Origin: Marilutibacter spongiae
GTDB lineage: Bacteria > Pseudomonadota > Gammaproteobacteria > Xanthomonadales > Xanthomonadaceae
Direction: 5' to 3'
NCBI RefSeq assembly: GCF_014145325.1
Contig: NZ_JACHTF010000005.1
Span: forward strand, 62,001-126,000
DNA: 64,000 bases
Part shown: positions 25,622-55,068 of the stretch, in pieces
Layout of the letters: each line of letters begins with the position of its first letter
How positions within the stretch are numbered: the first letter of the stretch is position 1
The notes under the pieces: generated by a model
What the model was told of the DNA's origin: nothing
The model's database searches: none
Seen by the model: the letters and a program-made list of their open reading frames with translations, nothing else
Program-made: the position numbers and the translations under genes

Positions 25622-27376
25622 TCACGGACAGGCTCCAGGCGTCCCGGGGGTGTCGTGCAGGGGCTCGGGGGGGCGCACCTGCAGGTAGCGCGCGCGCTTG
25701 CGCGGCCGCAACTGGTGCATGTCGACCTCGATCAGCCCATCCACCGAGTCGCTGAAGCCGGGGTCGACGCCGAACGCGAGGAAACGGGCGCCACCGGGTT
25801 CGCACAGCTCGGTGTACTGCTTGTAGAGCATGGGCAGCGCCGCCCCCATCGCCTCGAGGTTGTCGCGCAGGACCGCGAAGGCCGTGTCCGCGTCCAGGGC
25901 CTCGTCGAAGCCCGGCGGCGCGGCGCGGTAGCTGAAGGGTCGATTGGACACCGCCTGCCCCTCGGCGCTCCCGTAGAAGCGGCTGTAATAGGCGACGATC
26001 TGCTCGCGCGCGTCGACCGGCAGCGCGGCACTGATCGACACCGGTCCATACAGGTAGCGCACCCCGGGGTGGGCCACGAGGTAGGCGCCAATGCCCTGCC
26101 ACAGGTAGTCGATGCTGCGGCTGCCCCAGTACTCCGGCACCACGAAGCTGCGTCCCAGCTCCATGCCTTCCAGCAGTCGCGGCAGGGACGCGTCGGCGTA
26201 GCGGAACAGGGATGCGGTATACAGGCCGGCGAGCCCCCGCGTCGGCAGCACGTCGGCACCCCGGGCGACCCGGTACGCCCCGGCCAGCCGGCGCGCCGGG
26301 GCATCCCACAGCACGATGTGCTCGTACCAGCCGTCGTACGCGTCCAGGTCCAGCGCCGAGCCGGTGCCTTCGCCGACGCGACGGAACGTCAGCTCGCGCA
26401 GGCGCCCGATCTCGCGCAGCAGCTGAGAACCGGTGGCGAGCCGGCCGACCCGGATCTGCTTGCCGTCGGCGGTGGCGCCCAGCAGGGCCAGGCGCGCCAC
26501 GCCGCGCGCGACCACGTCGGCATCGACGGGCGGTACGAGGGGAACCGGTGCGTCATCGAGCCGTCCCGCCGGCGGCGCGCGGCGCGTGCCGATCGCGTGC
26601 AGTTCGCGGCGGACGCGGCGCAGCAGGTCCGCCGGCTCGGTGTCCGCGGGCAGGTGCAGCAGGCGCCCGATGCGCAGGGTGACGCGTCGGCGCCGGCGGG
26701 CGAACATTTCCCGCGCCAGCAACATGGTGCCCATCGGCTTGAAGACCGCCGACGCGCCATAGAACAGCGCCGAGTTGCGGGCCTGCACGCGGATCGGCAG
26801 GACCGGCGCGCCGCTGCGCCGGGCAAAGCGCAGGAAGCCGCGCCGCCAACGACCGTCGGAGACGCCGCGCAGCCCCAGGCGCGCGACCTCGCCCGCGGGG
26901 AACACGATCACGCAGTGCTCCTGCTCCAGCGCCGCCTGCACCGCGCGCAGGCTCTCGACGCCTGCGGCCCCGCCAATCACCCGGACCGGCAGCAGCAGGC
27001 CGTCCAGGCCATCCACCATCGACAGCAGCTCGTTGGCGACGATGCGCACGTCGCGGCGCACGCTGCCGACGAGATCGAGCAGGGCCAGCGCATCGAGCGC
27101 GCCGGAAGGATGGTTGGCGATGACCAGGAGGCGACCGCGGGCTGGAATCCGGTCTCGCTCGGTGGGGTCGACGACGTAATGCGCCTGGAGGAAGTCCAGC
27201 GCCGCGGTGACGAAATCGAAGCCCCGCAGGTGGCGGTTCGCCTCCAGGAAGCGTTCGGCCTCGTCCAGTCGCGACCAGCGGCCCAGGGTCCTGAGCAGGG
27301 GCCGCGACAGGCGCGACCTGCGGCCACTGAACCAGTGCGGGAAACGCTGTTGCAGACGCTCTTCGATCCGGCCCAT
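25622..27376 (-). CDS. bifunctional acyltransferase, OlsF-like (lyso-lipid O-acyltransferase + GNAT N-acyltransferase)
   Basis: A 584-residue fusion. The N-terminal half (about 1-280) is a PlsC-type acyltransferase with the variant motif NHPSGALD (NHxxG rather than NHxxxxD) and an FPAGEVAR block. The C-terminal half (about 300-584) resembles OlsB/haemolysin-type GNAT acyltransferases, with ELTFRRVGEG and GRSFVVPEYWG. This two-domain order matches OlsF enzymes, which make ornithine lipids from ornithine in two acylations. Ornithine-lipid function is inferred; acylation of other amines is possible. First gene of a three-gene minus-strand group with an LpxH-like phosphoesterase and a YdjM-like membrane protein. 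Confidence 0.82.
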   Translation of the reverse strand: MGRIEERLQQRFPHWFSGRRSRLSRPLLRTLGRWSRLDEAERFLEANRHLRGFDFVTAALDFLQAHYVVDPTERDRIPARGRLLVIANHPSGALDALALLDLVGSVRRDVRIVANELLSMVDGLDGLLLPVRVIGGAAGVESLRAVQAALEQEHCVIVFPAGEVARLGLRGVSDGRWRRGFLRFARRSGAPVLPIRVQARNSALFYGASAVFKPMGTMLLAREMFARRRRRVTLRIGRLLHLPADTEPADLLRRVRRELHAIGTRRAPPAGRLDDAPVPLVPPVDADVVARGVARLALLGATADGKQIRVGRLATGSQLLREIGRLRELTFRRVGEGTGSALDLDAYDGWYEHIVLWDAPARRLAGAYRVARGADVLPTRGLAGLYTASLFRYADASLPRLLEGMELGRSFVVPEYWGSRSIDYLWQGIGAYLVAHPGVRYLYGPVSISAALPVDAREQIVAYYSRFYGSAEGQAVSNRPFSYRAAPPGFDEALDADTAFAVLRDNLEAMGAALPMLYKQYTELCEPGGARFLAFGVDPGFSDSVDGLIEVDMHQLRPRKRARYLQVRPPEPLHDTPGTPGACP

Positions 27377-45502: not shown

Positions 45503-45703
45503 ATGGACATCCGACTCAATGGCGAGGCGCGCGACATCCCCGCCGGCACCACCGTCTCCATGCTGCTCGCGAACGAAGGTTTGGCCGAACGGCGCGTGGC
45601 GGTCGAGGTCAATGGCGAGATCGTGCCGCGTGGCCGGCATGACGGGCATGCGCTGGCCGCCGGCGACCGCGTCGAGATCGTGCACGCCCTCGGCGGCGGC
45701 TGA
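45503..45703 (+). CDS. thiS: sulfur carrier protein ThiS
   Basis: A 66-residue ubiquitin-like protein that carries sulfur as a C-terminal thiocarboxylate for thiazole synthesis. It starts MDIRLNGEARDIPAGTTV and ends in HALGGG, keeping the Gly-Gly tail needed for adenylation. Its partner ThiG (thiazole synthase) is normally adjacent; here it lies about 8.6 kb downstream, at 54274. The ATG at 45503 was chosen by family length. Confidence 0.93.
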   Translation: MDIRLNGEARDIPAGTTVSMLLANEGLAERRVAVEVNGEIVPRGRHDGHALAAGDRVEIVHALGGG

Positions 45704-45729: not shown

Positions 45730-45759
45730 TGCATCCGCGCCGCGCAGGGGCGCGTACCC
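45730..45759 (+). promoter_or_regulatory. putative SigK-type promoter of the sigma factor gene
   Basis: TGCATCCGC, 13 bp, then GCGTACCC (45752-45759). The same pair with the same spacing is found before the desaturase gene (47423-47452). Read as ECF elements, GCATCC (45731-45736) would be the -35 and CGTAC (45753-45757) the -10, with a 16-bp spacer, close to the SigK pattern recalled from mycobacteria. It would allow the sigma factor to activate its own gene. Confidence 0.6.
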
Positions 45760-46032
45760 GTCGGAGAGCGCCCGCAGCGGCGATCCCGACAGGCCTTCAT
45801 GTCCATCCCCGCCCTCCACCCTCCAGCCTCACGGGCGCGTGTCCGCGCCCGCGCGGCCAGGCGGCCATCCCAATGCGTGACGCGGGCGCTGGCATTCCGC
45901 GGCGATCGCGCGCATTGTCGCCGCTGGCGTAGCTCGACCACCGGGCCGTGCCCGGCGGTTGCTGCCTGCGATGAGGGTGCGCCGCCGTACCTTCCGCCCT
46001 TCCCCGGTCCACCCGCCCCCTCCGGAGCATCC

Positions 46033-46605
46033 ATGGCGTCACCCAGCGCAAGGCCCGAGCCCGACGCCGAACGACTGCGCGCCCTGCTTGCGCGGGTCGC
46101 GGAAGGCGACGCCCTGGCCTTCGACGCTTTGTACCGCGACGCCTCGCCGCGACTGATGGGCGTGTGCCTGCACCTGCTGGCCGATCGCGCCGAGGCCGAG
46201 GACGTGCTGCAGGACGTGTTCGTGACCGTCTGGAACAAGGCCGCGCAGTTCGATCCACGCAAGGCCGGCGCCATGACCTGGATGGCGACGGTCGCGCGCA
46301 ACCGCTCGATCGACCGCCTCCGCGCCCGCCCCGCGGCGCAGCGCCTGGCGCCGATCGACCTGGCCGAGGCGCTGGCAGACGAAGGCCCCACGCCCGCGGC
46401 TTCGGCGGCAAGTGCGCAGGACGGCCGGCGCCTGGACGCCTGCATCGATGAACTCGAGCCGCGGCGCCAGCGCCTGGTCCGGATCGCGTTCTTCGAAGGG
46501 GCCACCTACGAGGAACTGTCCCAGCGCGTGGGCTCGCCGCTGGGCAGCATCAAGAGCTGGATCCGGCGCAGCCTGCAGCAACTCAGGGCGTGCCTGGAAC
46601 GATGA
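46033..46605 (+). CDS. ECF sigma factor, SigK-like
   Basis: A 190-residue ECF sigma factor. Region 2 (about 15-85) contains FDALYRDASPRLMGVCLHLL and AEDVLQDVFVTVWNKAAQFD. Region 4 (about 130-185) contains RQRLVRIAFFEGATYEELSQRVGSPLGSIKSWIRRSL. Paired with an RskA-like anti-sigma gene through an ATGA overlap. The frame is open to an ATG at 45799 just after the putative promoter, but the 78 extra residues are Arg/Pro-rich and atypical, so the shorter form is favoured. Confidence 0.9.
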   Translation: MASPSARPEPDAERLRALLARVAEGDALAFDALYRDASPRLMGVCLHLLADRAEAEDVLQDVFVTVWNKAAQFDPRKAGAMTWMATVARNRSIDRLRARPAAQRLAPIDLAEALADEGPTPAASAASAQDGRRLDACIDELEPRRQRLVRIAFFEGATYEELSQRVGSPLGSIKSWIRRSLQQLRACLER

Positions 46606-47387
46606 ACATCCGCGGGCACGACATCGACGGCGAGCCACCGGGCGCGGACATCCGCGCCGGCGAGTATGTCCTGGGCGTGCTCGATGCCGCCGAGCGCCGC
46701 GAGACCGAGGACCGCATTGTCCGCGACCCGGCCTTCGCGCGACTCGTCGAGGAATGGGAAGCCCGGCTGGCCGGCCTGCTCGAGGGCATCGCGCCGGCCG
46801 ACGTGCCCGCCCACCTGTGGCCACGCATCCGCGCGCGCCTGGGCTGGCCGGCGGTCGCCGCCACGCCTGCCGGCATCTGGCAGGACGTCAGGGTCTGGCG
46901 CGGCGTCGCGGCCCTGGCGACGGCCGCGGCGATCGCCGCGATCGCGCTGGGCCGGTTCCACGCGCCTGCTCCGCCGCCATCGGCCCCGTCGGTCGCCACC
47001 ACGCCGGGCGAAACGCCCCCGCCTGCGCCTCACGGCGACAGCGCCGCGCCGCTGCCGGTCACCCTCCTCGCCGGCGAAGACGGGTCCCCCGCCTGGCTGG
47101 CCGCCGTGGACGCCGCCAACGGCACACTGCGCCTGGTGCCGGTACCGCACCCGGTCGATGCCGGTGGCCGTGTCCCGGAACTGTGGCTGATCGCCGAGGG
47201 CGAGGCGCCGCGCTCGCTGGGCCTGCTCGCCACCGACCGCGCGCAGACCGTCGTCGTACCCGCGACGCTGAGGGCCGGGCTCGCGCCGGGCAGCCTGCTG
47301 GCGATCTCCCTGGAGCCCAGCGGCGGCGCACCGGCCGGCGCGCCGACAGGGCCGATCATCGCCAAGGGCGGATTGCGCGCGCTCTAG
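46602..47387 (+). CDS. RskA-type anti-sigma factor
   Basis: A 261-residue protein. The N-terminal cytoplasmic domain has the family opening (AGEYVLGVLDAAERRETEDRI). One membrane segment is near residues 100-120 (RGVAALATAAAIAAIALGRF), followed by a Pro-rich linker and an RskA C-terminal periplasmic domain (about 150-255, with VPELWLIAEGEAPRSLGLL). It would hold the sigma factor inactive at the membrane until proteolysis. The ATG overlaps the sigma stop by 4 bp, so translation is coupled. Confidence 0.9.
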   Translation: MNIRGHDIDGEPPGADIRAGEYVLGVLDAAERRETEDRIVRDPAFARLVEEWEARLAGLLEGIAPADVPAHLWPRIRARLGWPAVAATPAGIWQDVRVWRGVAALATAAAIAAIALGRFHAPAPPPSAPSVATTPGETPPPAPHGDSAAPLPVTLLAGEDGSPAWLAAVDAANGTLRLVPVPHPVDAGGRVPELWLIAEGEAPRSLGLLATDRAQTVVVPATLRAGLAPGSLLAISLEPSGGAPAGAPTGPIIAKGGLRAL

Positions 47388-47388
47388 C

Positions 47389-47416
47389 TTCTTCGGCTTC
47401 TTCGGCTTCTTCGCCG
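47389..47416. repeat. CTTCTTCGG nonanucleotide microsatellite
   Basis: Three tandem copies of a 9-base unit lie directly after the rskA stop. Intergenic, just before the putative promoter of the desaturase operon. Confidence 0.8.
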
Positions 47417-47422
47417 GGTCCA

Positions 47423-47452
47423 TGCATCCGCTTGACGCGGGATTGCGTATCC
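47423..47452 (+). promoter_or_regulatory. putative SigK-type promoter of the desaturase operon
   Basis: TGCATCCGC, 13 bp, then GCGTATCC, identical in arrangement to the pair before the sigma gene (45730-45759). GCATCC (47424-47429) and CGTAT (47446-47450) are separated by 16 bp. The start codon at 47480 lies about 28 bp after the -10 element, a normal leader length. The two 13-bp spacers differ at most positions, so the shared ends stand out. Confidence 0.65.
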
Positions 47453-47479
47453 CCGGTAGGACGAAGACAGGAGCGCCCC

Positions 47480-48439
47480 ATGCCCGATACCCGCGCCGAG
47501 CCGCGCGAAGCCAGCCCCGGTCGAACGCGTCGATGGCGATCGATACTGCGCTGGTTCGACACCGCGGACGCGCAGGGCTACGAAGCAGGCGGCGATCGCA
47601 TCGACTGGCTTCGCGCGACCCCCTTCATCGGCATGCACCTGGCATGCCTGGCGGCGCCCTGGGTCGGCGTCTCCGCCGTCGCGATCCTGGTGGCAGTCGC
47701 GCTGTACGCCGTGCGCATGTTCGCGCTGACCGCGTTCTACCATCGCTATTTCTCCCACCGCACGTTCCGTGCGTCGCGTGCAGTGCAGTTCCTGGGCGCG
47801 GTGGTCGGCGCATCCTGCGTGCAGCGTGGCCCGCTGTGGTGGGCCGCGCATCACCGCAACCACCACCGGCACGCCGACACCGAGCATGATCCGCATTCGC
47901 CGCGGATCCGCGGTTTCGTCCACAGCCACGTCGGCTGGTTCCTCAGTCCGCGTGGCTTCCATACCGACTGGGCGCGCATCCCCGACCTTGCCCGCTACCC
48001 GGAGTTGCGCTGGCTCGACCGCTTCGACCTGCTCGTGCCGGTGGCTCTGGCGGCCGCCGTATACGGCTTGGGCGCCGTGCTCGAGCGGATCGCGCCGCAG
48101 TGGGGCACCAACGGGCCGCAGATGCTGGTGTGGGGCTTCTTCGTGTCGACGGTGGTGCTCTTCCATGCCACCGTCACCATCAATTCGCTCGCCCATCGCT
48201 ACGGCACCCGCCGCTTCGAGACCCGCGACGACAGCCGCAACAACGCCTGGCTGGCGCTGCTGACCTTCGGTGAGGGCTGGCACAACAACCACCATTTCTT
48301 CCCCGGCTCGGCGCGCCAGGGTTTCCGCTGGTGGGAAATCGACCTGACCTGGTACGGCCTGCGCGCCCTGTCCGCGCTGGGCGTGGTGCGCGGCCTCAAG
48401 CCGGTACCGGCGTGGGTCGCGGAAAGGGCGCGACGATGA
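47480..48439 (+). CDS. membrane fatty-acid desaturase (acyl-CoA desaturase type)
   Basis: A 319-residue membrane di-iron enzyme. The three histidine boxes are HRYFSH (88-93), HRNHHRH (125-131) and HNNHH (268-272), with four hydrophobic stretches between them. This layout is that of delta-9 acyl-CoA/acyl-lipid desaturases. It introduces double bonds that the methyltransferases downstream could act on. First gene after the putative SigK promoter; the next gene overlaps by ATGA. Confidence 0.93.
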   Translation: MPDTRAEPREASPGRTRRWRSILRWFDTADAQGYEAGGDRIDWLRATPFIGMHLACLAAPWVGVSAVAILVAVALYAVRMFALTAFYHRYFSHRTFRASRAVQFLGAVVGASCVQRGPLWWAAHHRNHHRHADTEHDPHSPRIRGFVHSHVGWFLSPRGFHTDWARIPDLARYPELRWLDRFDLLVPVALAAAVYGLGAVLERIAPQWGTNGPQMLVWGFFVSTVVLFHATVTINSLAHRYGTRRFETRDDSRNNAWLALLTFGEGWHNNHHFFPGSARQGFRWWEIDLTWYGLRALSALGVVRGLKPVPAWVAERARR

Positions 48440-49725
48440 GCCAGCGCATCGCCGTCGTCGGTGCCGGCATCGCCGGCCTCGCCAGCGCGTGGTGGCTGTC
48501 GCGGCGCCACGAGGTCGTCCTGTTCGAATCCCAGGCGCGCCTGGGCGGCCACACCCATACCCACGAGATCGACCTCGACGGCCAGCGCCACGCGGTCGAT
48601 ACCGGGTTCATCGTCTTCAACCGGATGCACTATCCGTTGCTCGACGCCCTGTTCGACACCCTGGACGTGGCGTCGCGACCGACCACGATGAGCTTTTCCG
48701 TGCACAGCGAGGCCAGCGGCGTCGAGTACAACGCCAGCACGCTGGACGGCCTGTTCTGCCAGCGCCGCAACCTGGTCTCGCCGCGCTTCCTGCGCATGGT
48801 CGCCGACATCCTGCGCTTCAATCGCGAGGCCGCGACGCTGCTGGAGGCTACCGGCGATGATCCCACGCTGGGCGAATACCTGGCCCGGCGACGTTACGGG
48901 ACCGCCTTCCGCGACGAGCACCTGGTGCCGATGGCATCGGCGCTGTGGTCGTCCCCGCCGAGGAAGATCCTCGAGTTCCCGATGCGCTTCCTCGTGCGCT
49001 TCCTGCAGAACCACCAGATGTTGCAGGTATCGGGCCGCCCGCAATGGCGCGTGGTGGAGGGCGGATCGTCGACCTACATCCGCGCGATGCAGGCCCGCTG
49101 GCGCGTCGAAGAACGCCTCGCCTGCCCGGTGGAGTCGGTGCGCCGCGACCATGCCGGCGTCGAGCTACGCCATGCCGGGGGGCGCGAACGTTTCGACCAG
49201 GTCGTGCTGGCCTGCCACAGCGATGACGCGCTGCGCCTGTTGCGCGACGCCAGTGCCGAAGAACGCGAGGTCCTGGGCGCGATCCGCTACCAGGCCAACG
49301 ATGCCGTCCTCCATGGCGACACCCGACTGCTGCCGGCCGACCCCAGGGCCTGGGCGGCATGGAACGCGCACGTGCCGGCCCGAGAAGGCGCGCCGTGCAC
49401 GGTCACCTACCACATGAACCTGTTGCAGGGCATCGAGTCGCGGCAGCCGTTCCTGGTCACCCTCAACCGGAACGCCGCGATCGACGACAGCAAGGTGCTC
49501 AGGCGAATGAAGTACCGCCATCCGCTGCACGACCACGCCGCGGTCGCGGCGCAGGCCCGGCGTGGCGAGATCCAGGGTCGGCGCCATACCTGGTTCGCCG
49601 GCGCCTATTGGGGCTGGGGATTCCACGAGGACGGCATGCGCAGCGCGCACGAGGTGGCCTCGGCCTTCGGCGTCGCGCCCGGCCAGGCCGACGGCAGGGC
49701 TGAACACCAGGGCGAGGCCGCATGA
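48436..49725 (+). CDS. FAD-dependent amine-oxidase-like protein
   Basis: A 429-residue flavoprotein. The Rossmann motif VVGAGIAGLASAWWLS is at the N-terminus, followed by the family segment LFESQARLGGHTHTHEID and DTGFIVFN. The C-terminal FAD-binding end contains WFAGAYWGWGFHEDGMRSA. Homologues next to CFA-like methyltransferases are known in many bacteria, including M. tuberculosis (Rv0449c), and in Rhodobacter a related protein contributes to furan fatty acid formation. Overlaps both neighbours by 4 bp. Confidence 0.9.
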   Translation: MSQRIAVVGAGIAGLASAWWLSRRHEVVLFESQARLGGHTHTHEIDLDGQRHAVDTGFIVFNRMHYPLLDALFDTLDVASRPTTMSFSVHSEASGVEYNASTLDGLFCQRRNLVSPRFLRMVADILRFNREAATLLEATGDDPTLGEYLARRRYGTAFRDEHLVPMASALWSSPPRKILEFPMRFLVRFLQNHQMLQVSGRPQWRVVEGGSSTYIRAMQARWRVEERLACPVESVRRDHAGVELRHAGGRERFDQVVLACHSDDALRLLRDASAEEREVLGAIRYQANDAVLHGDTRLLPADPRAWAAWNAHVPAREGAPCTVTYHMNLLQGIESRQPFLVTLNRNAAIDDSKVLRRMKYRHPLHDHAAVAAQARRGEIQGRRHTWFAGAYWGWGFHEDGMRSAHEVASAFGVAPGQADGRAEHQGEAA

Positions 49726-50501
49726 ACGGCGAACTGGCCAGCGCGGTCTACGAAGGGCGGGTCCAGCACCGTCGGCACCGCCCGAGCCGGCATGCCTTCT
49801 CGCACGGACTGGGCCAGTTGTGGCTGGACCTGGACGAGATCGACCGCGTGTTCGACCGCCACTGGCTGTGGTCGGTGGACCGGCGCAACGTCGCCGAGTT
49901 CCGCCGCCGCGACTACCTCGGCGGCGACGACGGCATGCCGCTGGCCGAGAGCGTGCGCAGCCGCGTGTGCACGGCCCTCGGGCACGCCCCGACCGGTCCG
50001 GTCCGCCTGTTGACCCATCCGCGCTATTTCGGCCATGTCTTCAATCCGGTCAGCTTCTACTACTGCTACCGCGCCGACGGCGTGGGGCTGGACGCGATCC
50101 TGGCGGAGATCACCAACACGCCCTGGCAGGAACGGCATGCCTATGTCCTGGATGTCGGCGACGCACGGCGACGCGGCAACGTCCTGGAATGGGACTTCGA
50201 CAAGCGCTTCCACGTGTCGCCCTTCATGGCGATGTCCCGCCGCTACCGCTGGCGCTTCACCGTGCCCGGCGACATCCTCGGCGTGCACATGCAGGCGCGC
50301 GACGGCGAAGACCGCGAGTTCGACGCCACCCTCTCACTCAAGCGCCGCCCGCTCGACGGCCGCGCGCTCGCCCGCCTGCTCTGGCGCTATCCGCTGATGA
50401 CCGCGCAGGTCGTCGGCGCGATCCACTGGCAGGCGTTGCGCCTGTGGCTCAAGCGCACCCCCGTACACGACCATCCGCGCCACGCCGGAGACACCCGATG
50501 A
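49722..50501 (+). CDS. DUF1365 family protein
   Basis: A 259-residue protein. Family segments: YEGRVQHRRHRPSRHAFSH at the start, LLTHPRYFGHVFNPVSFYYC, and KRFHVSPFMAMSRRYRW. DUF1365 has no assigned activity but is consistently found between an FAD amine-oxidase-like gene and a CFA-synthase-like gene, as here. Soluble, no membrane segments. Overlaps both neighbours by ATGA. Confidence 0.92.
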   Translation: MNGELASAVYEGRVQHRRHRPSRHAFSHGLGQLWLDLDEIDRVFDRHWLWSVDRRNVAEFRRRDYLGGDDGMPLAESVRSRVCTALGHAPTGPVRLLTHPRYFGHVFNPVSFYYCYRADGVGLDAILAEITNTPWQERHAYVLDVGDARRRGNVLEWDFDKRFHVSPFMAMSRRYRWRFTVPGDILGVHMQARDGEDREFDATLSLKRRPLDGRALARLLWRYPLMTAQVVGAIHWQALRLWLKRTPVHDHPRHAGDTR

Positions 50502-51760
50502 CCGAAGCCGTAACCCGGATCGACGATCCCGCCCGATACTCGACGATGGACCGCTTCCTGCGCGAACGCCTGCATGCGATGTTCGCGACGCTGGACCACG
50601 GCCGGCTCACGCTCGTCGACGGCCTGGGCAGCGCGCACTTCGGTCGCGTCGCGCCCGATGGGCTGGAAACCACGGTCCGGATCGCGGATCCGGCGTTCTA
50701 CCGGGCGGTCGCCGCTCGCGGCAGCGTGGGGGCCGGCGAGGCCTACATCGAGGGCCACTGGCAATGCAGCGACCTGGTGGCGCTGGTGCGCCTGCTGGTG
50801 CGCAACCGCGACCTGCTCGACGGGATGGAGGGCGGTCTGGCCCGGCTGGGCGGCTGGATGCTGCGCGCGTGGCATGCCCTGCGGCGCAACACCCGCGATG
50901 GCAGCCGGCGCAACATCACCGCCCACTACGACCTCGGCAACGAATTCTTCGCCCTGTTCCTGTCCCCCGACCTGATGTACTCCTCGGCCCTGTTCGAATC
51001 CGCGGACGAGCCGCTGGAAACCGCCTCGCGGCGCAAGCTGGAAGCGATCTGCGCCCACCTGGCGCTCCGACCCGGCGACCGCGTCGTGGAGATCGGCACG
51101 GGATGGGGCGGCTTCGCCCTGCATGCGGCGCGCCACCATGGCTGCCACGTCACCACCACGACCATCTCCCGCGAACAGCATGCGCTGGCCAGCCAGCGCG
51201 TCGCCGAGGCCGGGTTGCAGGAGCGCGTCACGCTGCTGCTGGACGACTATCGCGACCTGCAGGGCCAATACGACAAGCTGGTCTCGATCGAGATGATCGA
51301 AGCCGTCGGCGCCGACTACCTTGACACCTACTTCGCCACCCTCGGGCGCCTGCTGTCCCCGGGCGGGCGCGCCGTGCTCCAGGCCATCACCATCGAGGAC
51401 CACCGCTATGCGCAGGCCCGCGATTCGGTGGACTTCATCAAGCGCTTCGTGTTCCCCGGCAGCTTCATCCCCTCGGTCAGCGCCATGCTCGACGCCAAGA
51501 CGCGCAACACCGACCTGCAGCTGCTGGGCATGGAGGACTTCGGCCCTTCCTACGCGCTGACCCTGCGGGCGTGGCGCCAACGCTTCCTGGCCCGGCTGGC
51601 CGAGGTCCGGGCGCAGGGCTTCGACGAGCGTTTCATCCGCATGTGGACCTTCTACCTGGGCTACTGCGAGGGCGGGTTCCTCGAACGCGCGACCGGCGTC
51701 GCCCACCTGGTGATGGGCCGCCCCGACCGGCGCGGCATCGACGCGGGGGCGAGGGCGTGA
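50498..51760 (+). CDS. cyclopropane-fatty-acid-synthase-like methyltransferase (UfaA1-like)
   Basis: A 420-residue SAM-dependent enzyme acting on unsaturated acyl chains of membrane lipids. The SAM motif reads VVEIGTGWGGFAL near residue 199, and the CFA landmarks NITAHYDLGNEFFALFL, DLMYSSALF, EMIEAVGADY and KRFVFPG are present. Length and order match UfaA1 (Rv0447c), recalled as a methyltransferase proposed to make tuberculostearic-type methyl-branched acids. Product could be cyclopropane, methyl-branched or furan precursor. Confidence 0.93.
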   Translation: MTEAVTRIDDPARYSTMDRFLRERLHAMFATLDHGRLTLVDGLGSAHFGRVAPDGLETTVRIADPAFYRAVAARGSVGAGEAYIEGHWQCSDLVALVRLLVRNRDLLDGMEGGLARLGGWMLRAWHALRRNTRDGSRRNITAHYDLGNEFFALFLSPDLMYSSALFESADEPLETASRRKLEAICAHLALRPGDRVVEIGTGWGGFALHAARHHGCHVTTTTISREQHALASQRVAEAGLQERVTLLLDDYRDLQGQYDKLVSIEMIEAVGADYLDTYFATLGRLLSPGGRAVLQAITIEDHRYAQARDSVDFIKRFVFPGSFIPSVSAMLDAKTRNTDLQLLGMEDFGPSYALTLRAWRQRFLARLAEVRAQGFDERFIRMWTFYLGYCEGGFLERATGVAHLVMGRPDRRGIDAGARA

Positions 51761-52584
51761 GTCCCTTCGTCGATCTCCTGGTGGTGTGGGCGCTGGCCGC
51801 GGTGACGATGGCCGCGGCCTGGACCTGGCAGCGCCGCCACGCCAACGCCGGGATCGTCGACGTGGTGTGGGCCGGCGGCGTCGGTGCCTCGGCGCTGCTG
51901 CTGGCCGTGCTGGGGACGGGGGCCCTACTGCCGCGGGTGCTGCTGGCCGTGCTCGGCGGCGCGTGGGGGTTCCGGCTGGCGCTCCACCTCTGGCGGCGCG
52001 TCCGCCATGAAGAGGAGGACGGCCGCTACGCCTACCTGCGCCGTCACTGGAACGACCGCCAGGGCCTGTTCTTCCTGTTCTTCCAGGCACAGGCCCTCCT
52101 GGTGGTGCTGTTCGCGCTGCCCTTCCTGGCCGTGGCCGCCAATCCGGCCGGCGCCTTCGGGCCATGGACCGCGGCAGCGCTCGCGACCTGGGGGCTGGCC
52201 GTGGCGGGCGAGGCGATCGCCGACCGGCAACTGGCGCGGTTCCGCGCCGACCCGGCCAATCGCGGCCACGCCTGCCGGGCCGGCCTGTGGCGCTACTCGC
52301 GTCATCCGAACTACTTCTTCGAGTGGCTGCACTGGTTCGCCTATGTGTGCCTCGCGGTCGGCGCGCCCCTCGCATGGCTGGCCTGGGCCGGCCCCGTTGT
52401 CATGTACGTCTTCCTGCGCTGGATCAGCGGCATCCCCTTCACCGAGGCGCAGGCCCTGCGCAGCCGCGGCGAGGACTATCGCCGCTACCAGGCAAGCACG
52501 CCGATGCTGTTCCCCTGGTTCCCGCGCCCCACGCCCTCCTCCTCCCCCACGCCCCTGCGAGGTCACCATGAACGCGCGGATTGA
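51757..52584 (+). CDS. DUF1295 (steroid 5-alpha-reductase-like) membrane protein
   Basis: A 275-residue protein with about seven hydrophobic segments. The C-terminal block LWRYSRHPNYFFEWLHWFAY, followed by RSRGEDYRRYQAST, is the DUF1295/ICMT-like signature for NADPH- or SAM-binding membrane reductases and methyltransferases. It starts with GTG overlapping the previous stop (GTGA). In M. tuberculosis a similar protein is encoded beside ufaA1. A reductase of the acyl intermediate is a plausible role. Confidence 0.9.
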   Translation: MSPFVDLLVVWALAAVTMAAAWTWQRRHANAGIVDVVWAGGVGASALLLAVLGTGALLPRVLLAVLGGAWGFRLALHLWRRVRHEEEDGRYAYLRRHWNDRQGLFFLFFQAQALLVVLFALPFLAVAANPAGAFGPWTAAALATWGLAVAGEAIADRQLARFRADPANRGHACRAGLWRYSRHPNYFFEWLHWFAYVCLAVGAPLAWLAWAGPVVMYVFLRWISGIPFTEAQALRSRGEDYRRYQASTPMLFPWFPRPTPSSSPTPLRGHHERAD

Positions 52585-53671
52585 GTCCACCCTCCATCAC
52601 GAGCGCCCCGGGCCCGGCCTGATCGGCCTGGCCGAACGCGGCTGGATCCCCGACACGCTGCTGCGGCTGGGCATCCGGCGCCTGTGCCGGCAGCGCCTTC
52701 GCGAAGAACACGCCGGGGGCTGGACCGGCGAGGCCCACCGCTTCGAGGCCCGCCTGGCCATGCTCCGCGGCAGCCCGGTGGCCATCCATGCCGATGCCGC
52801 CAATGCCCAGCACTACGAGCTGCCGCCGGAGTTTTTCAGGCTCTGCCTGGGCAAGCGGCTGAAGTACTCGGCCTGCTACTACCCGGAGGGCGACGAGAGC
52901 CTGGACGAGGCCGAGGACGCCATGCTCGCGCTCTACGGCGAGCGGGCCGGCCTGGCGGACGGCCAGGACATCCTGGAGCTGGGCTGCGGCTGGGGATCGC
53001 TGACGCTGTGGATGGCCGAGCGCTACCCCAACGCGCGGATCACCGCGGTGTCCAACTCCGCCGCGCAACGCGAACACATCCGCGCCCAGTGCCACCAGCA
53101 CGGCTTCGACCACGTGCGCGTCATCACCGATGACGTCAACGTGCTGGAACTCGATGCAGCGGCCTACGACCGCTGCGTGTCGATCGAGATGTTCGAGCAC
53201 ATGCGCAACTACGCCGTGCTGCTGGAGCGCATCGCCGGCTGGCTGCGGCCGGGCGGCAAGCTCTTCGTGCACGTGTTCCTGCACCGCACGCTGATGTACC
53301 CGTTCGAGACCGAGGGCGAGGACAACTGGATGGGCCGGCATTTCTTCACCGGCGGCCTGATGCCGTCGGCCGATACCCTGGCCTGGTTCCAGGACCACCT
53401 GTCGCTGGAGCGCCGCTGGCTGCTCGACGGGCGGCACTACGCCCGCACCGCGAACCAGTGGCTGGCGCGGCAGGACCGCCACCGGGATGCGGTTGAGGCG
53501 GTCCTGGCCCACGTGCATGGCCAGGCGCAGGCCGCGCTCTGGGTGCAACGCTGGCGCATGTTCTGGATGGCCTGCGCGGAGATGTTCGACTACGACGGCG
53601 GCCGCGAGTGGGGCGTGGGCCATTTCCTCTTCAGCCGCCCCGACGACGCGGACGCGGGGGCCGGGCGATGA
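52568..53671 (+). CDS. second CFA-synthase-like methyltransferase
   Basis: A 367-residue SAM-dependent methyltransferase. The SAM site is ILELGCGWGSLTLWMAERYP near residue 137, with HYELPPEFFRLCLG and EMFEHMRNYAVLLERI, the CFA-type core. It is clearly distinct from the first methyltransferase in this operon, with a different N-terminus and active-site surroundings. Overlaps the previous gene by 17 bp. Whether it acts on a lipid or a precursor is unknown. Confidence 0.9.
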   Translation: MNARIESTLHHERPGPGLIGLAERGWIPDTLLRLGIRRLCRQRLREEHAGGWTGEAHRFEARLAMLRGSPVAIHADAANAQHYELPPEFFRLCLGKRLKYSACYYPEGDESLDEAEDAMLALYGERAGLADGQDILELGCGWGSLTLWMAERYPNARITAVSNSAAQREHIRAQCHQHGFDHVRVITDDVNVLELDAAAYDRCVSIEMFEHMRNYAVLLERIAGWLRPGGKLFVHVFLHRTLMYPFETEGEDNWMGRHFFTGGLMPSADTLAWFQDHLSLERRWLLDGRHYARTANQWLARQDRHRDAVEAVLAHVHGQAQAALWVQRWRMFWMACAEMFDYDGGREWGVGHFLFSRPDDADAGAGR

Positions 53672-54216
53672 GCGCGCTGTCCACGCCACTGCGCCCGCGC
53701 ACCCTCGCCGTGCTGTGCGCGGCGATGCTCGCCGGCTGCGCCCACCAGGCGCCGACCATCGCACCGGTCGAGGCGGTCGAGCTCCCGCGCTTCATGGGGA
53801 CCTGGTACGTCATCGCGCACATCCCCACCTTCGTCGAGCGCGACGCCTACAACGCCGTCGAGCGCTACCAGCTCGACGACGACGGGCGGATCCGCACCAC
53901 CTACACGCAGCGCAAGGGCGGCTTCGACGCGGACGAATCGACGATGCACCCCATCGGCCGCGTCGTCCCCGGTACCGGCGACGCCGTGTGGACGATGCAG
54001 TTCGTGTGGCCCATCCGCGCCGAGTACGTGATCACCTACGTCGACGCCGGCTACACCCAGACGATCATCGGGCGCAGCAAGCGCGACCATGCCTGGATCA
54101 TGGCCCGCACGCCGAGCATCCCCGAAGCCGACTACCAGGCCCACCTGCAGCGCCTGCGGGAAATGGGGTACTCGCTGGAGGACCTGCGCCGGGTCCCCCA
54201 GCGCTGGCCCGAGTAA
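53668..54216 (+). CDS. outer-membrane lipoprotein lipocalin (Blc-like)
   Basis: A 182-residue lipoprotein. The lipobox LAGC gives the lipidated Cys near residue 25 after a hydrophobic signal. The lipocalin motif GTWYVIAHIPTFVER follows. Blc-type lipocalins bind fatty acids and lysophospholipids in stress. It is the last gene of the lipid operon (ATGA overlap), consistent with moving or protecting the modified lipids. The ATG at 53668 is chosen over the earlier in-frame start. Confidence 0.92.
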   Translation: MSALSTPLRPRTLAVLCAAMLAGCAHQAPTIAPVEAVELPRFMGTWYVIAHIPTFVERDAYNAVERYQLDDDGRIRTTYTQRKGGFDADESTMHPIGRVVPGTGDAVWTMQFVWPIRAEYVITYVDAGYTQTIIGRSKRDHAWIMARTPSIPEADYQAHLQRLREMGYSLEDLRRVPQRWPE

Positions 54217-54273: not shown

Positions 54274-55068
54274 ATGAACGCCCCACACCGCATCGATCCG
54301 CTCGTCATCGCCGGGAAAAGCTACGGCTCCCGCCTGCTCACCGGCACCGGCAAATTCAAGGACCTGGAAGAAACCCGGCTGGCCACCGAGGCCGCGGCCG
54401 CCGAGATCGTCACCGTCGCCATCCGGCGCACGAACATCGGCCAGGCGCCGGGCGAGCCGAACCTGCTCGACGTCCTCCCGCCCGATCGCTACACCCTGCT
54501 GCCCAACACGGCCGGCTGCTATACCGCCGAGGAGGCGGTCCGCACCTGCCGCCTGGCCCGCGAACTGCTCGACGGGCATGCGCTGGTGAAACTCGAGGTG
54601 CTGGGCGACCAGAAGACCCTGTTCCCGGACGTCGTCGCCACCCTGGAGGCCGCCGAGACCCTGGTGGCCGAGGGCTTCCAGGTCATGGTCTACACCTCCG
54701 ACGATCCGATCCTGGCCAAGCGCCTGGAAGCGATCGGCTGCGTGGCGGTGATGCCGCTGGCGGCGCCGATCGGCTCCGGCCTGGGCGTCCAGAACCGCTA
54801 CAACCTCATGGAGATCGTCGAGAACGCCAGCGTCCCGATCATCGTCGATGCCGGCGTCGGCACCGCGTCCGATGCCGCGATCGCGATGGAGCTGGGCTGC
54901 GACGGCGTACTCATGAACACCGCCATCGCCGGCGCCCGCGACCCGCTGCTCATGGCCCATGCGATGAAGCTGGCCGTGGAAGCCGGTCGCGCCGCCTTCA
55001 AGGCCGGCCGGATCCCGCGCAAGCGCTACGCCTCGGCGTCCAGCCCGGTGGACGGCCTGGTCGGCTGA
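54274..55068 (+). CDS. thiG: thiazole synthase ThiG
   Basis: A 264-residue TIM-barrel enzyme joining DXP, dehydroglycine and ThiS-thiocarboxylate to make thiazole phosphate. Landmarks: [30 protein letters not shown] with the Schiff-base Lys, and the phosphate-binding [24 protein letters not shown]. Its partner thiS is at 45503, separated by the sigma/lipid operon; thiG is directly followed by trmB with a 1-base overlap. Confidence 0.97.

What the first reader, a model, noticed from the sequence alone, without database searches (positions are those of the whole stretch)
45730..54216. A SigK/RskA-type sigma system with seven overlapping lipid-modification genes in a Gram-negative bacterium
An ECF sigma factor and an RskA-type anti-sigma factor are followed by desaturase, FAD amine-oxidase-like, DUF1365, UfaA1-like methyltransferase, DUF1295, second CFA-like methyltransferase and lipocalin genes. 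The seven lipid genes all start within their neighbour's stop (ATGA or GTGA, or a 17-bp overlap), so they act as one translational unit. From memory, M. tuberculosis has sigK next to amine oxidase (Rv0449c), DUF1365, ufaA1 and DUF1295 genes, with rskA nearby. The same set here suggests an ancient module controlling acyl-chain modification of membrane lipids, extended by a desaturase, a second methyltransferase and an outer-membrane lipocalin. The product may be cyclopropane, methyl-branched or furan fatty acids.
Basis: partly seen in the sequence, partly recalled or inferred. Interest (0 to 1): 0.85.

Follow-up and report, generated by a model that had tools for sequence, protein, structure and literature searches.

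The report
Swapped stress switch on furan-lipid operon
A set of genes that probably makes antioxidant furan fats for the cell membrane sits under a stress switch of the kind known from mycobacteria, while some relatives appear to run the same genes from the same DNA signal with a different, singlet-oxygen-type switch.

Summary
In detail: an ECF sigma gene, an RskA-type anti-sigma gene and seven overlapping lipid genes. Best reading: the lipid genes are a furan-fatty-acid (FuFA) operon. The FAD protein and DUF1365 are of the UfaD and UfaO families; the first methyltransferase lacks the cyclopropane-synthase histidine; the second resembles coclaurine N-methyltransferases more than CFA synthases. 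Stenotrophomonas maltophilia has what looks like the same operon under a sigma/ChrR pair. Among 78 operons in the family, a promoter GCATC[CT]-N16-CGTA precedes 45 of 47 scorable ones with RskA or ChrR in the genome and 0 of 27 with neither. Regulator type changes at least six times while the promoter stays. The window genome alone of the 78 has both; its sister species lacks the RskA cassette but keeps the promoter. Mycobacterium loci show the same core gene order and a like promoter, and fasciclin genes, MPT83 kin, carry it too. So the SigK comparison holds, but not an ancient co-inherited module: the lipid genes do not group with SigK-linked actinobacterial ones. New variant of a known kind. 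Product, signal and sigma dependence are not measured.

The parts
45731..45756 (+). ECF-type promoter motif GCATCC-N16-CGTA upstream of the sigma gene (277 bp before its start)
   Evidence: in the 24 loci with RskA beside the operon the motif lies within 1.8 kb upstream of the sigma gene exactly in 19 and with one mismatch in 4 more
46033..46605 (+). ECF sigma factor, SigK/RskA-type (two SigK-family cysteines)
46602..47387 (+). RskA-type anti-sigma factor
   Evidence: PF10099 72.6 bits, cut-off 29.4
45730..47421 (+). sigma/anti-sigma cassette, absent from sister species G093, where about 24 bp stand instead; 9-bp repeat TGCATCCGC at 45730 and 47423
47424..47449 (+). ECF-type promoter motif of the lipid operon, identical in G093
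47480..48439 (+). membrane fatty-acid desaturase (histidine boxes)
48436..49725 (+). FAD amine-oxidase-like protein, UfaD candidate
   Evidence: gene order as ufaD-ufaO-ufaM by locus number (PMC7380195)
49722..50501 (+). DUF1365 protein, UfaO candidate (O2-dependent furan formation)
50498..51760 (+). SAM methyltransferase, UfaM candidate; Gln where cyclopropane synthases have His
51757..52584 (+). DUF1295 membrane protein (weak steroid-dehydrogenase-family match)
52568..53671 (+). second methyltransferase, coclaurine-N-methyltransferase type, FufM candidate
53668..54216 (+). Blc-type lipocalin (lipobox LAGC in the window protein)
45503..45703 (+). thiS, left neighbour; with thiG it marks the insertion site of the whole cluster
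54274..55068 (+). thiG, right neighbour

Best explanation
The seven lipid genes form one operon that makes methylated furan fatty acids on membrane phospholipids. The desaturase supplies a cis-monoene, the UfaM-like enzyme methylates it, the UfaD-like FAD enzyme adds the second double bond, DUF1365/UfaO inserts O2-derived oxygen to close the furan, and the second methyltransferase (FufM-like) adds a second methyl. DUF1295 and the lipocalin assist (role unknown). The operon is transcribed from its own ECF promoter GCATCC-N16-CGTA. A SigK/RskA-type sigma factor made next door recognises it; in relatives such sigmas appear to control their own operon, the lipid operon and a fasciclin gene, as SigK does in mycobacteria. 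A sigma/ChrR pair elsewhere in this genome has the same promoter motif and probably recognises it too, so the regulator cassette can be gained, lost or exchanged while the promoter stays. RskA probably holds the sigma at the membrane until envelope or membrane damage, perhaps photo-oxidative, leads to its release. Shown here: genes, order, promoter conservation, regulator alternation, presence/absence of the cassette. Inferred: products, sigma dependence, cross-recognition, signal.
For: UfaM, UfaD, UfaO (DUF1365) and FufM are proven FuFA enzymes (PMC7380195; abstract, sections 4 and 8, passages); the R. palustris genes RPA2571-2570-2569 are ufaD-ufaO-ufaM. cfa1 has Gln where three solved cyclopropane synthases have His, in 95 of 95 proteins compared across phyla and in 77 of 77 of the family. 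Second methyltransferase: 253 bits to coclaurine N-methyltransferase, 89 to the best CFA synthase; FufM is 37.87% identical to Arabidopsis LIME1 (PMC10940516 passages). A like operon in S. maltophilia is 165- to 697-fold up in a chrR mutant and back down without the sigma (PMC11832516 Table 1). Motif in 45 of 47 scorable operons with RskA or ChrR in the genome, 0 of 27 with neither, on the coding strand at spacing 16 only. ChIP-seq consensus of a ChrR-type sigma is TGATCC-N16-CGTA (PMC5507510 passages). Of 10 fetched RskA-type pairs away from the operon, 7 have the motif upstream. Cysteine pair in 25 of 25 sigmas beside RskA and operon, 10 of 10 such unlinked ones, 10 of 10 sampled Mycobacterium SigK, 0 of 32 ChrR-linked. 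Fasciclin genes carry the motif in 11 of 14 RskA-only genomes that have one. Mycobacteria: C[ACG]TCC-N16-CGAA before ufaD in 29 of 34, at most 2 at any other spacing of 12-20.
Against: No fatty-acid profile or transcription was measured. UfaM, UfaD, UfaO and FufM sequences were not compared directly. S. maltophilia sigma/ChrR mutants did not differ in singlet-oxygen tolerance; the effect was on superoxide tolerance and ceftazidime susceptibility (PMC11832516). For M. tuberculosis SigK the disulfide formed under oxidising conditions stabilises the SigK-RskA complex and reduction releases SigK (PMC7509140 introduction), which speaks against simple oxidative release. The motif alone is weak: up to one mismatch, the window has 4 matches against 4.78 in shuffles, and the backwards control pattern occurs 19 times in this genome against 7 for the motif. 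The motif also occurs on the opposite strand in 4 of 47. The regulator-motif link rests on few independent switches (3-4 pairs, sign test median p 0.5). Seven SigK-linked loci from other actinobacteria: only 1 has CATCC-N16-CGWA before ufaD.
Confidence: 0.7

Rival explanations
1. The operon makes cyclopropane or 10-methyl-branched fatty acids, not furans.
For: CMAS domains; a FAD oxidoreductase plus a methyltransferase from a mycobacterium makes 10-methyl stearate in E. coli (PMC5660069, title and passages); recombinant UfaA1 was reported to make it in vitro (same passages).
Against: DUF1365 is the UfaO family and is not named in those passages; cfa1 lacks the His of cyclopropane synthases in 95 of 95; the second methyltransferase is not close to CFA synthases.
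Confidence: 0.15
2. In this genome the operon is driven by the unlinked sigma/ChrR pair; the adjacent SigK/RskA pair is redundant or recently arrived and matters little.
For: ChrR pair present (185.6 bits) with the same promoter motif; sister G093 has only ChrR and an identical operon promoter; the operon tree places the window among mostly ChrR-type operons (100/98).
Against: 25 operons in genomes with RskA and without a counted ChrR keep the promoter, so an RskA-linked sigma alone fits it; the cassette is intact with its own promoter motif.
Confidence: 0.25
3. Ancient SigK/RskA-lipid module inherited as a unit from a common ancestor with actinobacteria.
For: Same core order and promoter spacing in Mycobacterium; shared cysteine pair; a SigK+RskA sigma clade is not rejected (p-AU 0.18).
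Against: This operon's lipid genes group with other proteobacterial and sigma-less actinobacterial loci, not with SigK-linked ones (starred branches of a quick tree); repeated regulator switches.
Confidence: 0.1
4. Chance neighbours: the sigma pair has nothing to do with the lipid genes.
For: The pair can be absent (G093) or unlinked (G090, G138).
Against: An RskA-type pair lies beside the operon in 24 of 78 loci; motif association 45 of 47 against 0 of 27.
Confidence: 0.03

Closest known systems
R. sphaeroides RpoE-ChrR regulon and FuFA pathway (ufaM RSP2144, ufaD RSP1091, ufaO RSP1090), PMC7380195
   Same: UfaD-UfaO pair and UfaM-type methyltransferase under ECF control; fasciclin RSP_1409 in the regulon (PMC7074977 Table 1)
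   Different: anti-sigma is ChrR; ufaM lies outside the RSP1091-1087 operon, which has a transporter, a hypothetical gene and a short-chain dehydrogenase in place of desaturase, second methyltransferase and lipocalin
S. maltophilia smlt2375-2367 under sigmaEc-ChrR, PMC11832516
   Same: desaturase, FAD oxidoreductase, two methyltransferases and lipocalin in the same order, strongly sigma-dependent
   Different: ChrR instead of RskA; nine genes instead of seven (four others are called hypothetical there, so their identity with DUF1365 and DUF1295 is inferred); furan is not mentioned
Mycobacterial SigK-RskA locus and regulon
   Same: ufaD-DUF1365-cfa-DUF1295-sigK set, SigK cysteines, like promoter, fasciclin targets MPT83/70 (PMC7509140)
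   Different: sigma gene downstream of the lipid genes; desaturase, second methyltransferase and lipocalin not found there; lipid genes in another clade
R. capsulatus RpoE-ChrR that resembles SigK-RskA, PMC7074977 passages
   Same: SigK/RskA-like pair in a Gram-negative, induced by photo-oxidative stress
   Different: no homologue of RSP_1090/1091 in that species (its Table 1)
Yersinia enterocolitica mpt83-sigK-rskA, PMC7509140 passages
   Same: SigK/RskA pair in a Gram-negative with a fasciclin gene
   Different: no lipid operon described in the passages seen

Membership tests
SigK (ECF18/19) sigma factor | two cysteines equivalent to C133 and C183 of M. tuberculosis SigK | tested here: met
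   window and 25 of 25 sigmas beside RskA and operon; 0 of 32 ChrR-linked; feature from PMC7509140
SigK (ECF18/19) sigma factor | score over NCBIfam SigK model cut-off | tested here: not met
   147.5 bits against 226; best model PRK12534, 218.7 against 267
SigK (ECF18/19) sigma factor | one clade with actinobacterial SigK apart from ChrR-linked sigmas | tested here: inconclusive
   (74 of 89 rows, 3 outgroup rows): best tree joins RskA- and ChrR-linked sigmas (93/85, unstarred); SigK+RskA clade not rejected (p-AU 0.18)
SigK (ECF18/19) sigma factor | SigK-like promoter CATCC-N16-CG[AT]A at its target | tested here: met
   47424-47449 fits; in Mycobacterium C[ACG]TCC-N16-CGAA 29 of 34, strict CATCC-N16-CG[AT]A 21 of 34; other SigK-linked actinobacteria 1 of 7
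RskA anti-sigma factor | RskA_C domain over Pfam cut-off, gene overlapping the sigma gene | tested here: met
   72.6 bits, cut-off 29.4; ATGA overlap
RskA anti-sigma factor | binds and inhibits its sigma at the membrane | not testable with these tools
   needs experiment
ChrR-type pair (ECF11) | anti-sigma with the ChrR cupin domain | tested here: not met
   the window anti-sigma matches RskA_C only; a separate ChrR pair lies at G000:C31
Furan fatty acid operon | UfaD-, UfaO(DUF1365)- and UfaM-type genes together | tested here: met
   order by locus number as RPA2571-2569 and PSPTO_1118-1116
Furan fatty acid operon | makes FuFA in vivo | not testable with these tools
   needs GC-MS
FufM methylase | homology to RPA0924 | tested here: inconclusive
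   RPA0924 not compared; the window protein is of the coclaurine-N-methyltransferase type; FufM resembles LIME1; that LIME1 is of this type is recalled
Cyclopropane fatty acid synthase | His and Cys aligned to E. coli 266 and 139 (numbers and roles recalled) | tested here: not met
   cfa1 has Gln295 and Ser163 there; three solved synthases have His and Cys

The most novel reading that the evidence does not exclude
SigK-RskA and RpoE-ChrR are interchangeable switches for one conserved regulon (furan-fatty-acid synthesis plus fasciclin) read from one promoter type, CATCC-N16-CG[AT]A, across Pseudomonadota and Actinomycetota. The mycobacterial SigK locus is then a furan-fatty-acid pathway, and its unknown signal is light- or singlet-oxygen-type membrane damage. 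The window genome, with both switches, shows the exchange in progress.
Probability: 0.3. Interest if true: 0.9.

Novelty: new variant of a known kind. Interest (0 to 1): 0.72.

Why it matters
The stimulus of the mycobacterial SigK regulon is described as obscure (PMC9861118 passages), and what its lipid genes make is unsettled. The shared gene order, promoter and fasciclin target turn that into a direct test: look for furan fatty acids and for light or singlet-oxygen induction. In M. kansasii light raised two fasciclin genes that have putative SigK sites (same passages); the SigK locus itself is not among the induced loci in the passages seen. It would also be a clear case of two sigma/anti-sigma families exchanging control of one operon without a change of promoter. 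I saw no paper that links SigK to furan fatty acids in the held library; PMC7074977 holds both terms but does not link them in the passages seen. Dufour 2008 and Veyrier 2008 could bear on it: a look-up of the first failed, the second was not looked up.

Tried and rejected
Ancient co-inherited SigK-lipid module: set aside as the main reading. Motif counts in the window or genome alone: not informative. Photolyase genes of congeners as further targets: no motif in the three loci scanned, of four matches. GC content: the cassette is 74.9% GC against 69.9% for the window; no conclusion drawn. DUF1365 structure: confident model (pLDDT 92.4), but the fold search could not be run. The strict lipobox pattern fits 4 of 35 lipocalins, so an outer-membrane lipoprotein is suggested for the window protein alone. 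Searches contained a reading-frame error of mine (wrong open frames taken for some genes); seen, corrected; no number from them is used here.
Full report
What is there. The window lies in a 3.6-Mb genome (G000, contig C44). No call names the organism; that its family (f1 in the tools) is Lysobacteraceae/Xanthomonadaceae is inferred from the S. maltophilia operon below. Pfam confirms the families. The sigma's best solved relatives are M. tuberculosis SigK (103.6 bits) and R. sphaeroides RpoE (89.3 bits).

What the lipid genes are. Lemke et al. (PMC7380195; abstract, sections 4 and 8 and passages seen) showed that UfaM, UfaD and UfaO make a furan fatty acid on phospholipid chains, that UfaO holds a DUF1365 domain, and that FufM adds a second methyl. 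By locus number the R. palustris genes run ufaD-ufaO-ufaM, as here. The first methyltransferase matches E. coli CFA synthase (210 bits) but has Ser and Gln where three solved cyclopropane synthases have Cys and His. Gln is present in 95 of 95 proteins compared across phyla and in 77 of 77 of the family; the Ser is not constant. The second methyltransferase fits coclaurine N-methyltransferase (253 bits) far better than CFA synthases (89 bits). FufM is 37.87% identical to Arabidopsis LIME1 (PMC10940516 passages); that LIME1 is of the coclaurine-N-methyltransferase type is recalled. I did not compare directly with UfaM, UfaD, UfaO or FufM. DUF1365 has no solved relative by sequence; a confident model was made from 40 sequences (pLDDT 92.4), with H16, R18, D64, N132, Y141, K161 and Y175 among the invariant residues. 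Its fold could not be searched.

A like operon under another switch. S. maltophilia smlt2375-2367 has desaturase, FAD oxidoreductase, two methyltransferases and lipocalin in the same order, four more genes called hypothetical, and rises 165- to 697-fold in a chrR mutant in a sigma-dependent way (PMC11832516 Table 1). [quoted passage not shown] DUF1365 occurs in 78 of 149 genomes drawn from the family, and stretches around all 78 were read. In 24 an RskA-type pair lies beside the operon, in 19 another ECF sigma, in 35 no sigma was found in the stretch. ChrR is over its cut-off in 19 of 149 genomes; I also counted two with split matches of over 100 bits (G081, G104) and did not count weaker matches in 25 more. 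RskA_C is found in 42 of 149. By these counts G000 is the only one of the 78 with both; its ChrR pair is on contig C31.

A shared promoter. Upstream of the desaturase, GCATC[CT]-N16-CGTA occurs in 45 of 47 scorable operons whose genome has RskA or ChrR (25 of 26 RskA only, 19 of 20 ChrR only, 1 of 1 both) and in 0 of 27 with neither; 4 of 78 could not be scored. The exceptions are G096, whose RskA match is weak (37 bits), and G010, which has GGATCC-N16-CGTA. Spacings 10-15 and 17-22 give 0 of 47; the pattern read backwards gives at most 1; the opposite strand gives 4 at spacing 16 and 1 at 12; 6 of the 27 'neither' loci have spacing 17. The motif is close to the ChIP-seq consensus TGATCC-N16-CGTA of a ChrR-type sigma in P. 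syringae (PMC5507510 passages). In the 24 loci with RskA beside the operon it lies within 1.8 kb upstream of the sigma gene exactly in 19, with one mismatch in 4 more. Of 10 fetched RskA-type pairs away from the operon or in genomes without it, 7 have it. Against this: the regulator-motif link rests on only 3-4 independent switches, and the pattern is common enough that single-genome counts prove nothing.

Switching and insertion. On a tree of 71 of the 78 operons (seven incomplete ones dropped), RskA against ChrR needs 6 changes, and the window sits in a clade of nine ChrR types, one RskA type and itself (100/98). Sister species G093 (93% identical over these proteins) lacks the cassette: window 45730-47421 is replaced by about 24 bp, while the desaturase promoter is identical. 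A 9-bp repeat, TGCATCCGC, lies near both ends. Whether G000 gained or G093 lost the cassette is open. In 7 of 9 other genomes tested thiS and thiG lie close together (in the other two no thiS was seen, one stretch being short); in G000 and G093 the operon is between them, and none of the other 76 operon stretches has a thiS or thiG match. Most simply the cluster was inserted there in their common ancestor.

The SigK comparison. The SigK family's two redox cysteines (PMC7509140) are present in 25 of 25 sigmas beside RskA and operon, 10 of 10 unlinked RskA-type, 10 of 10 sampled of the 80 SigK loci, 9 of 12 other actinobacterial ones, and 0 of 32 ChrR-linked ones. The sigma tree does not resolve the three groups, and the NCBIfam SigK cut-off is not reached. 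Of 80 loci found with SigK, mostly Mycobacterium, at least 31 show ufaD-DUF1365-cfa-DUF1295-sigK in order; in the rest some of these genes were cut off or not detected. C[ACG]TCC-N16-CGAA precedes ufaD in 29 of 34 that could be scanned, strict CATCC-N16-CG[AT]A in 21; in seven SigK-linked loci of other actinobacteria only 1 has it. The lipid genes of SigK-linked actinobacteria lie in a clade of 15 (11 SigK-linked, 4 without sigma), apart from this operon (quick tree). In a wider sample, 11 of 20 proteobacterial loci outside the family had a ChrR match (one of them without a sigma match beside it), 1 had RskA and 8 neither; 9 of 40 actinobacterial loci had a SigK-type sigma in the stretch (one of the 40, L241, was chosen through SigK) and none had ChrR. 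I obtained 60 of the 80 loci wanted.

A second shared target. MPT83/MPT70 belong to the SigK regulon (PMC7509140), and a fasciclin, RSP_1409, to the RpoE-ChrR regulon (PMC7074977 Table 1). G000's only fasciclin match lies beside its sigma/ChrR pair and has the promoter. Of 32 further genomes that I chose, 23 had a fasciclin gene; within 800 bp upstream of the domain the motif stood in 11 of 14 RskA-only, 5 of 7 ChrR-only and 1 of 2 with neither (30 of 31 matches were given as loci). In M. kansasii light raised two such fasciclin genes 6- and 3-fold; the SigK locus is not among the induced loci in the passages seen (PMC9861118). R. capsulatus has a SigK/RskA-like pair induced by photo-oxidative stress (PMC7074977). 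Against an oxidative signal, oxidising conditions are reported to stabilise the M. tuberculosis SigK-RskA complex (PMC7509140).

How it most likely works. RskA holds the sigma at the membrane; membrane damage, perhaps photo-oxidative, leads to release; the sigma reads GCATCC-N16-CGTA at its own operon and the furan-fatty-acid operon, and in relatives at fasciclin. The furan chains then scavenge oxidants, as reported for R. sphaeroides (PMC7380195). In this genome a ChrR-linked sigma probably reads the same promoters, so two inputs may converge. Family membership, order, promoter and regulator distribution are shown; product, signal, cross-recognition and sigma dependence are inferred.

Noticed in passing
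upstream of the desaturase in loci without counted RskA or ChrR, e.g. L038, L045, L065, L072: A different element, TTCAC-N7-TCAC (spacer 7-9 allowed in the search), lies upstream of or near the start codon in 19 of these 27 loci and in 0 of 47 with RskA or ChrR: an unknown third regulator.
   Followed up: partly
L006, L007, L029, L041, L063, L068: Six of those 27 loci have GCATCC-N17-CGTA further upstream, and their genomes hold weak partial matches to the ChrR profile: perhaps a divergent ChrR-like switch with another spacing.
   Followed up: no
window 45503-45703 and 54274-55068: thiS and thiG, close together in 7 of 9 relatives tested, are split by the sigma and lipid cluster in G000 and by the lipid operon in G093.
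   Followed up: yes
between cfa1 and DUF1295 in many relatives, e.g. L006_9: A small membrane protein gene (perhaps the counterpart of smlt2370) is missing from the window operon and several others.
   Followed up: no
L016, L017, L011 and others: A protein of about 260 residues with a signal-peptide-like start (perhaps the counterpart of smlt2375) often stands upstream of the sigma or desaturase gene; not seen in the window.
   Followed up: no
L202, L207, L208, L212, L215, L218: In these six actinobacterial loci without a sigma match, a desaturase gene lies divergent from ufaD, so the desaturase link recurs in another phylum.
   Followed up: no
G149:C3:446626-447321 and G293:C1:3942536-3943261: The DUF1365 match of two actinobacterial genomes holds one TGA stop.
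   Followed up: no
window 26301-26326: An exact motif match with the same letters in G093, G141 and G131, probably inside a conserved gene and not a promoter.
   Followed up: no
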